A program made the position numbers and the translations under genes. The notes under the pieces were generated by a model that was not told the origin of the DNA, did no database searches, and worked only from the letters and a program-made list of their open reading frames with translations. A stretch of DNA of 64,000 nt from Prillingera fragicola (taxonomy: Eukaryota > Basidiomycota > Tremellomycetes > Trichosporonales > Trichosporonaceae), in the NCBI GenBank assembly GCA_002335605.1, contig BEDY01000002.1, forward strand, positions 1,674,001 to 1,738,000. Direction: 5' to 3'. Shown here piece after piece: positions 39,307 through 45,611 of this stretch. Numbering within the stretch: position 1 is the first letter of the stretch; every line of letters starts with the position of its first letter.

Positions 39307-42300
39307 ATGTCGGCCGCCCAACCTGCAGCCCGACCTGCCCCGCATGCCGGGCTCACGGATCGCGTTGCCGCCGACATGTCGACGCGCAGCCATGTCTTCC
39401 CCAACGCCGTAGCAGGTCCGTCGACCCACTCGTCCTCGGACTTGTCTCCAACGCCACGTAAAACACGCAAGACCATGACCCCAGCGCTGCCTGTTCCCCG
39501 ATATGTTCCGCCTTCGGCTGCGACTGAGATCGAGGTCGCCAAGCCTCACTGCTTGTATGTGTTCATACACACGCGTTCATGACTGACTTTAGTTTCCCGC
39601 TTAACAACCACCCTGCAAGGTCGCTAGAGCAGGAGCCCGAGGAGACTCTGGAAGAAGTCGTTTATCACCCCGACGATGACCCCGCTGCGCTCCGCGGCAT
39701 CCCCGTCTTCAAACCGACATTCGAACAATTCAAGGTAAGCGCGCTTTTGCTACTAGTTCATCTCTTGCTGACTGCATAGCAATTTGACGTGTACATGGAG
39801 AAGGTGCGCCGGTGGGGTGAGCGCTCCAGCATCGTCAAGATCATTCCGCCGAAGCAGTGGGTCGACAATGTGAAGCTTATCGACGAGGCCGCCTTGTCCG
39901 AGCTGGAGATCCGAAGCCCTATCGAGCAGTGCATGCTCGGCAAGAATGGCGTATTCGTTCAGCGAAACGTTGAGCGCATGCGCAATCGCCCGCTGTCCAT
40001 TCACGAGTGGTTTGATAAGTGCAATCACCCCGAGATGATGACACCAAATCCTAAGGAGATGGACCGTTCGATTGACCGCGATTCGAAGGAAGCAAAGGAG
40101 TGGAAGGCGCAGATGCTGGCAAAAGCGAAGGCAGAGCGAAAAGCCAAGAAGGATGCCGCTGCCAAGCGCAAAGAGGAGCGCGCGCAGCGTCTCACCTCAG
40201 CCAAGGTCAAGGAAGGCGATGCCGAAGAGATGGACGAGCCCGATGCCCCTCTTCAAGCCCGTGCACCCATGGAAGAAGATATCAAACTCGAAATTGGCAA
40301 TGAGCCTATTGAAGACGACGTTCCCGATCTCGACGCTTCCTCGCACACCTCACACTCAACGGGTGAGCCACTAGCTACGACTCCCGAGCCCTCGTTTGAT
40401 GGGAATCGTCCGGTCGACCCTTTCTACGCCGAAACAGATCTTCGCAAGGCCTGGCTACCAGAGGGCGTCGAACCTTCAGACTTCACGGTAGCCGGTTGTG
40501 CGAACATTGAGCGCAAGTTCTGGAAGACGCTGGGAATAGGGAAATCAAGCTGGTACGGTGCCGATCTGGCAGGATCGCTGTTCGCCGACGACAAGTATCC
40601 TTGGAACGTCGCTCAGCTCCCGAACCTTCTTCGAAATCTTCCCGAGAAGCTGCCTGGAGTCAACTCGCCCTATCTCTACTTTGGCATGTGGCGTGCTGCC
40701 TTCTCTTGGCACGTCGAGGACATGGACTTGTTCTCGATCAACTACATCCACTTTGGCGCCCCCAAGTTTTGGTACGCCGTGCCTCAGGTCGAGGCCGAGC
40801 GTTTCGAGTCGGTTGTGCGCAGCCGCTTCCCCAACGAGGCGAACATATGTGGCCAGTTCATGCGTCACAAGTCCTGCACAATCTCCCCCACCATGCTGCA
40901 CGCAGCCGGTATCCGCGTCAACAAACTCGTGCAGCACCAAAACGAGTTTGTCATTACCTTCCCTCGTGGGTACCACGCCGGGTTCAACATGGGCTTCAAC
41001 TGCGCGGAGAGCGTCAACTTTGCGCTCCCTTGCTGGGTAGAGCTTGGCCGCAAGGCTAAGGCTTGCTCATGCGTCGACTTCAGCGTCCGTATTGATGTGG
41101 ACTATCTGACAGGCGAGCGTCCGCCGAATGAGGAGTCCGAGTCTGAATCCGAGGCTGAGCCCGAGCTCGAGCCAAAGCCTGAGGCCGCCGGTCGTAAGCG
41201 CAAAGCTGAGGATTCTGTAACTCCCAGCACGACACTCAAGAAACGCGGCCGCCCACCCAAGACTGCCAAGGCGCTGGAGCAATCAATCCCCGCCCCTGTC
41301 CCGACGCCAATCAAACTCAAGATCGCCCTTCCACAGGCTCCGTCAGCACCGGCTGCGCAAAAGACGCCACCCAAGGCCAAGACTCCGCGCAAACCCAAGG
41401 AGACCATCTTTCTCGAGAAGCCCACTCCGTGCCCATGCGTCCTGTGCCCTGGTCTCGCTGTTGACGACCTGGCACCTGTGTTTCAGCCGTCTGACCACAT
41501 ATTTTCCTTGTCCCAAACAACTGCTGTACAGGCCCACATATCCTGCGCAGTCGCAGTACCGGAGGCCTTCACCGAAGATCTCGAGGTGGGTGGTCAGACG
41601 ATCACCTATATCAAGGGTATCGACAATATCGACAAGGCCCGCTGGAAGTTGAAATGTGCCGCCTGCAAGGACAAGCGCCGGTCAACCATGGGTACCAAGA
41701 TTCAGTGCACCAAGGGCAAGTGCATTCGTGCCTACCATGTCTCTTGTGCACGTGATGATGAGATGGTAATGTACTCGGCTGAGACCAGGCTCACTGCCGA
41801 GCCTGTCGAGCGGCCGGATGGAACGTGGGACTATAAGCAGGTTCCCGAATTTGTTGTGGAGCTCTTGTGCCCCACCCACAATCCCGCGGTCCTGGAGCTT
41901 AAGAAGCGCAGAGCGGAAGAGGAGCTGCGCGCCAAGGTTCTCGCGATTGAACTGGGGTCGTCTGTCAAGGTTAAGAAGGGCGGCAGCACATACCAGGCTC
42001 TGTTGACACATGTCGATGAAACGAAGAGGACCATCATTGTCCGCCTTGACGACACCTCGAACAGGGAAGTCAACTGGACCGCTCTGGACTTTACAAGCAA
42101 GCAGCCGCAGATGCTTGAGAACGAATATGCGCGCCCACCGAAACGCAGCCGCAAGGAGCAGCCGGCCGCCATTGGAGGCTCTGAGGCTCCGGCTCCTCAA
42201 CACGACGGTGACGTTGCTGCCAACATTCCTCGACACCCCGTGCAGTACTACAGGCCGCCGCCTGCTCACGCACCGGCACCACCCAGGCAGTACCATCAGC

Positions 42301-44066
42301 CACCCCAGCACCACAACATGGCTCACCCCATCATGCCACCACCTCATTTGCCACCCGCTGGGTACCACTATGGCCGTGGTCCTGGATCGATGATGCCGCC
42401 ACCTCCACGCAGTATGCCTCCCCCGAGCATACCTCCGCACGTCGCGTATCGGCCGCCTCCGCATGGTCACATGCCACTGGCTCCACCACACTGCGCGCCC
42501 ATTCACGCGTCTCGCCCTCCTCTGCACATGATGGGCCCGCCTGTCTACACCGGCGCCTCTGCCGGCCACCCTGGCGCGTCAGGTCCGCAACAGCCACCTC
42601 AGCACCTCCCGCAGCAGCCTCAGCAGCCATCACAGCCAGGTCAGGCCCCTCGGCTTCCCAATGGCACGCCTGGCGGTGTTGGACGCATCGACCTTGGATT
42701 GGACCGCATGATGTCTCTCATGGCTTCTTTGCCACCTCTCACCGTTCCAGCTATCCACTTGTCTGGGACAAACGGCAAGGGATCGGTCTCGGTGCTGCTC
42801 GAGTCCTGCTTCAACAGGGCAGGCATGCGAACCGCTCGTTACAACTCTCCCCACCTGCTCGAGCCTCGTGACGCCGTCCGTATCGATGGCATTCCGCCCT
42901 CGGCGGAAGAGTATGCCGCAGCCTTGGAGTTTGTGCAGCGCACTGCCGATGGACGCAGGCTGGAGGCAACAGTGTTTGAAATTGCGACCGCCGCGGCCTT
43001 CTACATTATCAACGCGGCAAAGGTCGACGTCATGATCATCGAGTGTGGTATGGGTGGTGCACGGGACGCGACAAACGTCATTCATCCTGGGCTCATCCTC
43101 GCCTCCGGTCTCACGTCTGTTGGTCTCGACCACACTGATCGCCTCGGCAACACCATTAGCGCGATTACTCGTGAGAAGGCGTCGATCGCCGTACCTGGGG
43201 GTGTGCTTGTTGTCGCTCCACACCTCCTTCCAGAGGCTCTTGCGACAGCGCAGCAGGTGGCTGCAGAGCGCGACGTGATGTTCGTTGAAGCCCGCGCGAC
43301 CACTCAGGTGTCACCTCCCAGCACTGTCCGTCTCGAGCCATTCCACGAGCCTGAGCCTGCAACAGTGCGCACGCCCCTCGCGGGAGCCAGAACCAGCGAT
43401 CACACGCTCGTAACGCGTCTCAGGCTCGGCGGCTCGCACCAGCTGGATAATCTGAGTCTTGCCCTCACTCTGCTCGACGTGATTCGTAACAATATGCGTG
43501 CCCATCACATCCAGCCCAAGCTTGCTGGACTCAACGATGCCCATCTTTCGGCCGGGGTTGCTGATGCCCAGTGGCAGGGCCGCTGCTCGTGGCTGCAGCT
43601 CCAGGATCCATCCACCGGCCGGGTCATACCGATGCTCGTCGACGGTGCGCACAACGCAGACTCGGCGGCGACACTCAGGCGCTACATGGACTCGCTTGGT
43701 CCTGCGGCTCGTCGCCCACGCACCTTTGTTCTGTCGCTCTCGGCCAACCCGTCCAAGACGCCGAAGAGCGTGCTCGCCCCTCTGCTGCGTCCAGGCGACC
43801 GCGTCGCACTAACCTCGTTCACTACGCCAGTCGAGGGAATGCCATGGATCCGCGTCGCTGACGCCGCCGAGGTACGCAAGGCGGCTGAAGAGCTAGGCTG
43901 TCAGTCGAGTCAGGTGCGGGACATTGCTGGCTCGGGTCCTGCAGCTGTTGCCGACGCCCTTCGCTGGGCGACGCATGATTGGGACAAGACTGGTCCCGCA
44001 TTGGTTGTTGTTTGTGGAAGCTTGTACCTGGTTGCGGACGCGTATCGTCTCAGAGGACAGGCGTGA
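39307..44066 (+). CDS. JmjN-JmjC-PHD histone demethylase fused in frame to dihydrofolate synthase (1558 aa)
   Basis: Three exons: 39307-39554, 39593-39734 and 39780-44066; the 4.3-kb last exon has no stop. JmjN spans about residues 118-165 (IPVFKPTFEQFKQFDVYMEKV, across intron 2). JmjC spans about 410-550 with Fe(II) ligands H441, E443 (SWHVEDMD) and H529 (GYHAGFN). A Cys/His-rich extended PHD follows (about 676-830), then a Tudor-like stretch and a Pro/His/Met-rich linker. This matches KDM4/JHDM3-type H3K9/K36 demethylases. From about residue 1098 the chain becomes a folylpolyglutamate-synthase-family enzyme: RIDLGLDRM, P-loop SGTNGKGSV (about 1126-1134), SPHLLEPRDAVRIDG, ECGMGGARDATN, SVGLDHTD and DGAHNADS. 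The DGA motif and 460-residue length fit Fol3, which joins glutamate to dihydropteroate. Homology begins before any nearby ATG. Confidence 0.88.
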
Positions 44067-44241: not shown

Positions 44242-45611
44242 TTAGAGCTTGCTGCCGCCGAGGAGCTTGGCTCCCTGCGCAAGCGATGCCTTGGCGCCGG
44301 CGACCATCTCATCGATAATCTGCTGAGCGGGCTGGACCTCCTTGATGACGGCCGAGACGTCTCCCATGAGCCAGGGGCGGCCGGGGAGCGAAAGCTCGGG
44401 CTTCTTCTGGAGCTCAAGCTCGTGGGGGAGCTTGCCGGCCGAGGTGAGGGCCTTGATCTCGTCCTGGCGGCTCTCCCAGCTCTTGACGTAGTCGGTGCGG
44501 CGGACACGGAGGGGACGGCCAGTGTAGATGAGGGTGGTGCCAGTGTCACCGTGGTCGGCGGTGACGACGAGCTCCTTGTGCTTGGGGGGAGCACCGGCCT
44601 CCTTGGAGGCAACGAAACGGGTGCCGACCCAGACACCCTGGGCGCCGTACATGAGGGCAGCGGCGAGACCACGGCCGTCGTAGATACCACCGGCGGCGAT
44701 AACGTAGATGGGCTTGCCGGTGAGCGACGAGGTCTTGCCCTTGCACTTGTCAACACAGGCAGGGATGAGGATCGAGGTGGCGACCGAGCCGGTGTGGCCA
44801 CCGCCCTCGCCACCCTGAGCGCAGATGAGGTCCATGCCGACGGCGAGGGCCTTGTCAACGTGCTTGGGAGCGCCAACCATGTTCATGCAGACAATGCCGG
44901 CCTTGTGGAGGCGGTCGACAACATGCTTGGGGGGGACACCGACGGCGCAAACAAAGAGCTTGGCCTTCTCCTCGATGATGACGTCGATGAGCTGGTCGAG
45001 CTGGCCCTTGGTGTAGTCGTAGTTGGTCTTACGGGCAGTCTCAGCGGTTGAGGGGAGGAGGAGGTCGACACCGAAAGCTGATGAAGGTTAAGACTAGCTT
45101 CTCCGGCTTTCGGCTGGTAGAATGGATTCATAGCCGAGGTGGGCTATGGGACTCACGAAGGTCGGGCGACTTGAGATCAGCCTTGAGCTCTTTGATGACG
45201 CTGCGGAGGTGCTTGGGACTGGATTGTCAGCTATAGGACCTTCGGGATGCAGAAAGACGCGTCAAACTCACGTCTAAAACATTAGTCATGGCCATCGGAA
45301 TTTGTTGCTCACGTCTGTGAGGATCAGCTTATGGCTCGAGTGATCGGCGAGAGTCACGTACAGCCAACACCACCAATTGTGCCGAGACCACCGGCGTTAG
45401 AGACGGCAGCAGCAAGCTTGGGGCCAGCGGCAACGTTCATGCCGCTACAAAGGTCAGTTCATGTTTGATTAGGACGCGTGAACCGGGCCAGGTCCGCTGA
45501 AAACGTACGCAAGGAACACGGGGTTCTTGATGCCGACTGGGGATGTTAGGACTGTAATCACATGGGAGCGTGATACTCACGCATCTCGGTGACTGGGGTC
45601 TGGAGCGACAT
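44242..45611 (-). CDS. nitronate monooxygenase (2-nitropropane dioxygenase family), 347 aa, with two 2-nt microexons
   Basis: Exons in transcript order: 45611-45581, 45536-45509, 45444-45362, 45314-45313 (2 nt), 45273-45272 (2 nt), 45218-45157 and 45077-44242. The enzyme is an FMN protein that oxidises nitronates such as propionate-3-nitronate to harmless products. Visible motifs are GIKNPVFLAGMNVAAGPKLAAAVSNAGGLG at the N-terminus, FGVDLLLP, then CAQGGEGGGHTGSVATSILIP and AAGGIYDGRGLAAALMYGAQGVWVGTRF for flavin phosphate binding. The microexons are needed to give GGVGYTPKHL; without them the frame breaks. One alternative uses the donor at 45357, extending exon 3 by four bases, and removes a single 138-nt intron, giving GGVGCTPKHL instead. 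Codon bias is extreme in the last exon, suggesting high expression. Confidence 0.9.

What the first reader, a model, noticed from the sequence alone, without database searches (positions are those of the whole stretch)
39307..44066. JmjC histone demethylase fused in frame to a complete dihydrofolate synthase
Seen: one 4287-nt exon without a stop carries JmjC (H441, E443, H529), extended PHD, a Pro/His linker, then a full Fol3-type domain with P-loop SGTNGKGSV. Homology to Fol3 starts at RIDLGLDRM, upstream of the nearest ATG pair (42708/42711), arguing against two separate genes. Known: JmjC demethylation releases formaldehyde, which reacts with tetrahydrofolate; folate binding has been reported for the unrelated demethylase LSD1. 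Inference: the fusion could couple a folate-making enzyme to a formaldehyde-producing one on chromatin, or supply both by alternative starts. I know of no such described architecture.
Basis: partly seen in the sequence, partly recalled or inferred. Interest (0 to 1): 0.88.

Follow-up and report, generated by a model that had tools for sequence, protein, structure and literature searches.

The report
Histone demethylase fused to folate synthase
In this fungus one uninterrupted reading frame joins a KDM4-type histone demethylase to the only Fol3-like dihydrofolate synthase gene found in the genome, the same join appears in database proteins of 25 named fungi of two orders, and it likely yields a single two-enzyme protein that would carry a step of vitamin B9 synthesis into the nucleus.

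Summary
Exon 39780-44066 (4287 nt, no stop) encodes JmjC, extended PHD, a small barrel, a disordered Pro/His/Gln linker and a complete FolC-fold Fol3 domain. The genome search found one other FolC-type gene, which looks like the polyglutamylase. The same order is found in 29 of 261 collected proteins, 25 of them named Trichosporonales or Tremellales. In trees of both halves these form one clade, with split Cryptococcus genes nested inside: one old fusion, probably with later fission. In a sister clade Fol3 is the C-terminal end of other frames, including a HOS3-like histone deacetylase in Naganishia.

So Fol3 looks like a recurrent C-terminal rider, which speaks against formaldehyde capture as the reason for joining; Fol3 would make dihydrofolate, not the formaldehyde acceptor tetrahydrofolate. 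Most likely: one bifunctional polypeptide with a synthase predicted to be nuclear. No transcript or protein evidence was available; a free Fol3 from an internal start is not excluded. Ten full-text searches listed no description. Architecture and distribution are shown; single-chain product, location and activities are inferred.

The parts
39307..39554 (+). exon 1 of the fusion gene (predicted)
   Evidence: ATG at 39307; intron 1 reads GTATGT...CTGAC...TAG; the spliced model is open
39593..39734 (+). exon 2 (predicted)
   Evidence: intron 2, 39735-39779, reads GTAAGC...CTGAC...TAG
39780..44066 (+). exon 3: 1428 codons and stop, holds both enzymes
   Evidence: stop-free frame
39702..39848 (+). 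JmjN domain, cut by intron 2
   Evidence: PF02375 42 bits, cut-off 26, residues 120-153 of the spliced model
40671..41021 (+). JmjC domain, KDM4/Rph1 type, Fe ligands H441, E443, H529
   Evidence: PF02373 137 bits; 3opt E 6.5e-86; residues
41238..41261 (+). KKRGRPPK, AT-hook-like basic stretch (label recalled)
   Evidence: sequence
41529..41789 (+). extended PHD
   Evidence: PF13832 56 bits and PF13771 55 bits
41961..42074 (+). small four-strand beta-barrel, Tudor-like by appearance (not searched apart)
   Evidence: AlphaFold2 model, high pLDDT, strands at model residues 181-218
42135..42155 (+). PPKRSRK, NLS-like basic stretch (label recalled)
   Evidence: sequence; the same or nearly the same stretch in several relatives
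42099..42683 (+). Pro/His/Gln-rich linker, predicted disordered
   Evidence: pLDDT mostly under 50 over model residues 227-422; composition
42684..44063 (+). complete Fol3/FolC-type dihydrofolate synthase domain
   Evidence: TIGR01499 243 bits; FolC fold, Foldseek TM 0.83 by target length to 2vor; PDB sequence matches
42762..42785 (+). P-loop SGTNGKGS
42528..42533 (+). in-frame ATG pair (42528, 42531), nearest possible internal start before the Fol3 homology
   Evidence: use untested

Best explanation
The gene is an old in-frame fusion of a KDM4/Rph1-type histone demethylase gene with a Fol3-type dihydrofolate synthase gene, and it is likely translated as one bifunctional protein in which the synthase rides on a long, predicted disordered linker. 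Shown: the open frame, both complete domains, the conserved motifs expected for catalysis in each, the only Fol3-type gene found in the genome, and the same join in 25 named fungi of Trichosporonales and Tremellales. Inferred: the demethylase half removes methyl groups from histone H3 tails; the synthase half joins dihydropteroate and glutamate with ATP to give dihydrofolate, and as the only such gene would supply the whole cell; the basic stretches upstream of the linker would take both to the nucleus, where small substrates and products can pass nuclear pores. The synthase is best read as a C-terminal rider that tolerates many N-terminal partners, so direct channelling between the two active sites is not needed and is probably not the reason for the join.
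For: Open frame and model; domains; FolC fold and disordered linker; one other FolC-type gene, with P-loop TGTKGKGS; DHPS and DHFR genes present. Of 261 proteins collected by the three searches 29 hold JmjC+PHD+FolC and 4 more PHD+FolC; 32 of these 33 keep the P-loop and 28 a WHxED iron-site motif. Joined rows form one clade, split rows inside it, in a FolC tree of 61 rows chosen by known partner (100/99) and in a demethylase tree of 39 rows (100/99), apart from Phaffia, Mrakia and three Agaricomycetes. A linker motif (like RVVVCDS), 102-266 aa before Fol3 and in its frame, occurs in 30 of 62 relatives that have at least 40 aa of frame upstream (62 of 93 rows of the clade); shuffled linkers gave a mean of 0.015 and at most 1 (the motif was picked after seeing these sequences). 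No branch-point-like site in the window's linker.
Against: No RNA or protein data. The window's own linker lacks the motif and aligns to 15 other linkers little better than shuffles do (3 to 163 of 200 shuffles score as high). C. deuterogattii and C. depauperatus have separate halves, C. neoformans a demethylase without Fol3, T. mesenterica separate models of which the demethylase is marked partial. One unnamed trichosporonalean ORF (P0170) stops inside the linker. In-frame ATGs before Fol3 allow a separate synthase. Of two odd Cutaneotrichosporon models, P0006 cuts the linker to 18 aa and P0011 also drops the start of Fol3 with its P-loop; both keep the join.
Confidence: 0.66

Rival explanations
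1. One gene, two proteins: an internal promoter or start, or cleavage in the disordered linker, gives a free synthase besides (or instead of) the fusion.
For: In-frame ATGs at 42528/42531 with A at -3 for the second; disordered linker; split-gene relatives have a free synthase with a short N-terminal extension (P0103, P0115).
Against: No in-frame Met position is seen to be shared by the linkers that I read by eye; no transcript data either way.
Confidence: 0.24
2. Functional coupling: tetrahydrofolate made near the demethylase captures the formaldehyde it releases.
For: JmjC demethylation releases formaldehyde (established chemistry, recalled); LSD1 binds folate, suggested to protect it from formaldehyde (review PMC6722216, passages seen).
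Against: Fol3 is expected to make dihydrofolate, which must first be reduced by DHFR, a separate gene; in a sister clade Fol3 is joined to a deacetylase, a zinc-finger-like, a DENND11 and a hydrophobic-tail protein; halves separate in some Cryptococcus.
Confidence: 0.06
3. Two separate adjacent genes, merged only by the open frame and by automatic annotation.
For: Split proteins in some Cryptococcus and in T. mesenterica; some of the 75 hits look like annotation merges, e.g. Fol3 before a GH28 enzyme.
Against: No stop between the halves, so the demethylase has no end of its own; no canonical intron signals; ORFs of other sources (P0001, P0007), which look genomic by their intron-like starts, run through without a stop; a linker motif kept in frame in relatives.
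Confidence: 0.04

Closest known systems
Saccharomyces cerevisiae Rph1 and human KDM4A-D (JMJD2) demethylases
   Same: JmjN and JmjC over cut-off; best solved relatives Rph1 3opt (E 6.5e-86) and KDM4D (E 3e-74 and weaker); extended PHD; a small Tudor-like barrel follows (KDM4A's Tudor pair is recalled)
   Different: About 195 aa of disordered linker and a whole metabolic enzyme follow
Fungal Fol3 / bacterial FolC (dihydrofolate synthase; E. coli FolC 1w78)
   Same: Fold, P-loop, DATN and DGAHN motifs
   Different: No start codon of its own at the usual place; it is the C-terminal domain of a chromatin enzyme
Folate multi-enzyme fusions (fungal Fol1, protist DHFR-TS; recalled)
   Same: In-frame joining of a folate enzyme to another protein
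   Different: Those join steps of one pathway; here the partner is a histone demethylase
LSD1 with bound tetrahydrofolate (Luka et al. 2011, 2014, as cited in PMC6722216)
   Same: A folate link to a histone demethylase
   Different: LSD1 is an unrelated demethylase that binds folate; nothing is fused and no folate is made
Naganishia HOS3-like deacetylase joined to Fol3 (P0035, P0036, P0039; found here)
   Same: Fol3 as C-terminal domain of a histone-modifying eraser
   Different: Other partner, separate clade

Membership tests
KDM4/Rph1 histone demethylase | JmjC domain over Pfam cut-off with HxE...H iron ligands | tested here: met
   PF02373 137 bits of 24 needed; H441, E443, H529
KDM4/Rph1 histone demethylase | JmjN domain over Pfam cut-off | tested here: met
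   PF02375 42 bits of 26 needed in the spliced N-terminus; exon 3 alone falls short, 15.1
KDM4/Rph1 histone demethylase | Closest solved relatives are Rph1/KDM4, with 2OG-site Tyr/Lys and Zn-site Cys/His motifs | tested here: met
   best PDB matches 3opt Rph1, then KDM4D and KDM4A; motifs located (residue roles recalled)
KDM4/Rph1 histone demethylase | H3K9/K36 demethylase activity | not testable with these tools
   needs an assay
FolC/Fol3 dihydrofolate synthase | NCBIfam folC over cut-off | tested here: met
   TIGR01499 243 bits, cut-off 162.65
FolC/Fol3 dihydrofolate synthase | Pfam Mur_ligase_M over cut-off | tested here: not met
   12.5 bits of 24; the precomputed Pfam lists of most joined relatives lack it too, and fold and TIGR01499 are clear, so membership rests on those
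FolC/Fol3 dihydrofolate synthase | FolC fold | tested here: met
   top Foldseek matches 2vor, 2vos, L. casei FPGS; 1w78 at rank 9
FolC/Fol3 dihydrofolate synthase | DHFS rather than polyglutamylase activity | not testable with these tools
   inferred from the second gene with P-loop TGTKGKGS that looks like FPGS (the P-loop rule is recalled)
Bifunctional fusion protein | One open frame across both domains, shared by relatives | tested here: met
Bifunctional fusion protein | One transcript and one polypeptide | not testable with these tools
   no RNA or protein data held

The most novel reading that the evidence does not exclude
Basidiomycete yeasts have more than once bolted their only dihydrofolate synthase onto histone erasers (KDM4 in Tremellales and Trichosporonales, a HOS3-like deacetylase in Naganishia), placing folate synthesis on chromatin so that one-carbon supply and histone marks are controlled by one molecule.
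Probability: 0.17. Interest if true: 0.92.

Novelty: new variant of a known kind. Interest (0 to 1): 0.74.

Why it matters
A vitamin-pathway step that animals lack and an epigenetic enzyme would be one protein in yeasts of two orders, so a mutant or inhibitor of one half could disturb the other. The split form nested in Cryptococcus gives a natural comparison of joined and separate halves. The wider pattern, Fol3 ending up at the C-terminus of unrelated proteins in several lineages, asks why this enzyme tolerates or favours fusion, and whether folate synthesis in the nucleus is useful.

Tried and rejected
Two-gene reading: rejected for lack of a stop or canonical intron signals between the halves and because of the shared join. 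Frame-breaking intron in the linker: one 5'-site-like match and no CTRAY; a non-canonical intron is not excluded. Conservation of the window's own linker: aligned against 15 linkers with shuffles; little beyond composition. Docking of the conserved linker motif: second AlphaFold2 job, on P0077, leaves the linker (residues 46-199) under pLDDT 50, no sign of docking. Identity of the tail joined to Fol3 in P0139 and kin: Pfam and PDB gave nothing useful; my first guess, a sugar transporter, stays unconfirmed. A weak third match in the genome (C3:2286305, E 0.033) has no FolC P-loop in its longer frames and is not in the folC family search. Adjacency of split genes: no scan of a collection holding fungal contigs was available; close locus tags (L203_105660/L204_105664, from two strains; TREMEDRAFT_31415/31421) only hint at it. 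Papers: ten full-text searches, seen as listings, show no paper on the fusion; in PMC4102429 (domain architectures in fungi) a term search found JmjC without this pairing and no Mur ligase or folylpolyglutamate; PMC6722216 was seen in passages. Supplements were not open.
Full report
What is there. The strand reads from an ATG at 39307 through two short introns (39555-39592 and 39735-39779, each with GT...CTGAC...AG) into one exon, 39780-44066, that is free of stops until its end, 4287 nt. The spliced product has 1558 residues. The exon-3 product of 1428 residues matches JmjC (PF02373, 137 bits) and two extended-PHD families (PF13832, PF13771), all over the curated cut-offs, and NCBIfam folC (TIGR01499, 243 bits, cut-off 162.65). 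JmjN, cut by intron 2, passes in the spliced N-terminus (42 bits of 26). Pfam's Mur_ligase_M stays under its cut-off (12.5 of 24). Solved relatives of the first part are Rph1 (3opt, E 6.5e-86) and KDM4 enzymes, and of the last part FolC enzymes. A predicted structure of the product from 41421 on shows a confident extended PHD region, a small beta-barrel, a linker with pLDDT mostly under 50 (model residues 227-422) and a confident last domain; the best Foldseek matches of the model are FolC/FPGS structures (2vor, TM 0.83 by target length).

Is the joint real in this genome? The linker frame is open for 600 nt; by its own composition 6.1% of simulated sequences would be, by flanking non-coding composition 0.04%. 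Synonymous codon use favours the coding frame (+17.3; the other forward frames -3.1 and -21.0, the reverse frames -22.0, -2.6 and +10.7). There is no CTRAY branch-point-like site in 41951-42720 and a single 5'-splice-like site. None of this is decisive alone; the comparison with relatives is.

Relatives. A search with the Fol3 part, restricted to proteins of the length of the whole, returned 75 proteins (only the 7988 candidates sharing most words were scored). Two more searches, with Fol3 alone (94 proteins) and with the demethylase part (best 120 of 861 listed), brought the collection to 261. Of these, 29 hold JmjC, PHD and FolC parts, 4 PHD and FolC, 136 FolC without either, and 92 JmjC and PHD without FolC. 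Of the 29, 25 carry names: Vanrija (3), Cutaneotrichosporon (3) and Cryptotrichosporon (1), which are Trichosporonales, and Kwoniella (12), Cryptococcus (3: C. amylolentus and two unnamed species), Naematelia (1), Kockovaella (1) and Tremellales sp. Uapishka_1 (1), which are Tremellales (Cryptococcus recalled). Four are unnamed ORFs, of which P0001 and P0007 begin with residues that look intron-derived and so look genomic. Other genera of the two orders were not looked for one by one. Split forms: C. deuterogattii and C. depauperatus (two strains) show both halves as separate proteins, C. neoformans a demethylase without Fol3, and T. mesenterica two models, its demethylase marked partial. In a 39-row tree of the demethylase half the joined clade has support 100/99 against Phaffia, Mrakia and three Agaricomycetes; the split Cryptococcus rows are nested within, while T. 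mesenterica stands at an unresolved base. In a 61-row tree of the FolC half (rows chosen because their partner was known) the KDM4 clade has 100/99, with T. mesenterica beside P0033, an ORF with PHD and FolC (100/98), and the split Cryptococcus rows beside joined ones (95/61 for C. depauperatus with C. deuterogattii and kin). One fusion at the base of Tremellales plus Trichosporonales, then one or two fissions, is the simplest reading; that the T. mesenterica split is real rather than a gene-model break is not shown.

The linker. In 31 of the 33 joined rows it measures 159-356 aa and is rich in Pro, Ser, Gln, His, Gly and Ala; two Cutaneotrichosporon models are shorter, P0006 with 18 aa, and P0011, a doubtful model that lacks the start of Fol3 with its P-loop. 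A short motif like RVVVCDS stands in 30 of 62 relatives with at least 40 aa of frame upstream of Fol3, against a mean of 0.015 and a maximum of 1 over 200 rounds of shuffling (the pattern was chosen after seeing the sequences). Another, like LRMDEMLNP, is in the joined P0021, P0022, P0023 and P0012 and in the tails of the split demethylases of C. deuterogattii, C. neoformans and C. depauperatus, but not in P0013 (8 proteins checked), as expected if the split cut through the linker. The window's linker does not match the first motif and aligns to 15 others about as well as shuffles do. A second structure prediction, of a relative with the first motif, leaves its linker without confident structure.

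The genome. Fol3 matches this locus and C1:1.689-1.690 Mb, the latter a FolC-type gene with P-loop TGTKGKGS, which from recalled knowledge looks like the polyglutamylase Met7/FPGS. A third, weak match (E 0.033) shows no FolC P-loop. Genes for dihydropteroate synthase and DHFR are present. The fused domain is therefore the only candidate dihydrofolate synthase found; the search scores only the best candidates and the assembly may be incomplete.

A wider pattern. In a sister clade Fol3 is again the C-terminal end of other frames. In three Naganishia species (Filobasidiales) it follows a histone deacetylase (PF00850; best solved relative of P0035 is HOS3), and four unnamed ORFs (P0144, P0147, P0148, P0155) run from that deacetylase's tail into Fol3 in frame. 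Three ORFs carry a HIT/MYND-like finger (scores under cut-off), in P0040 about 15 residues before Fol3; eight share a tail, hydrophobic where long enough, of unknown identity; one carries DENND11. Each state with more than one row is its own clade (HDAC 100/100, tail 100/99, finger 100/99). Thirteen rows, many of them named smuts, share an N-terminus of roughly 740-980 aa, with no Pfam match in the one scanned. Topoisomerase I in Batrachochytrium and a photolyase in Sorochytrium also precede FolC domains, each one database entry. Some of the 75 hits are probably annotation merges, for example Fol3 before a GH28 enzyme.

Reading. The fusion is real and old. Most likely it is one protein with two working enzymes, the synthase carried as a rider and, because of basic stretches in the demethylase part, predicted to be nuclear. 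Formaldehyde capture is a weak reason for the join: the product of Fol3 is dihydrofolate, the acceptor is tetrahydrofolate (established chemistry, recalled), and the synthase has been joined to unlike partners elsewhere. A nuclear advantage (KDM4, HOS3, topoisomerase I and photolyase are nuclear or DNA enzymes by recalled knowledge) is possible, but the other partners do not fit it, and no count of chance joins was made. A separate synthase from an internal start or by cleavage stays open. Ten full-text searches of an open-access library listed no description of this architecture; subscription papers and supplements were not searched.

Noticed in passing
P0035, P0036, P0039 (Naganishia), ORFs P0144, P0147, P0148, P0155: Fol3 is joined in frame behind a HOS3-like histone deacetylase: a second fusion of the synthase to a histone-modifying enzyme, its own clade.
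   Followed up: partly
P0037, P0040, P0161; P0130, P0131, P0134, P0137-P0140, P0142; P0034: Further ORFs with Fol3 at the C-terminus behind a HIT/MYND-like finger, a partly hydrophobic tail of unknown kind, or DENND11.
   Followed up: partly
P0046, P0049, P0050, P0052-P0060, P0065: Thirteen rows, many of them named smuts, have a FolC domain behind a shared N-terminus of roughly 740-980 aa; the one scanned, P0055, has no Pfam match.
   Followed up: partly
P0043 (Batrachochytrium), P0044 (Sorochytrium): FolC domains behind topoisomerase I and behind a photolyase; photolyases use a folate cofactor (recalled). One database entry each, could be annotation merges.
   Followed up: no
linkers of relatives, e.g. 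P0013, P0029, P0092: Conserved short motif like RVVVCDS in an otherwise disordered linker, function unknown; absent from the window's copy.
   Followed up: partly
P0170: An unnamed trichosporonalean ORF of the same demethylase stops inside the linker without Fol3: a further split, or an intron there.
   Followed up: no
window 44242-45087, strand -: Convergent neighbour gene with a nitronate monooxygenase domain (PF03060, 137 bits, cut-off 28).
   Followed up: partly
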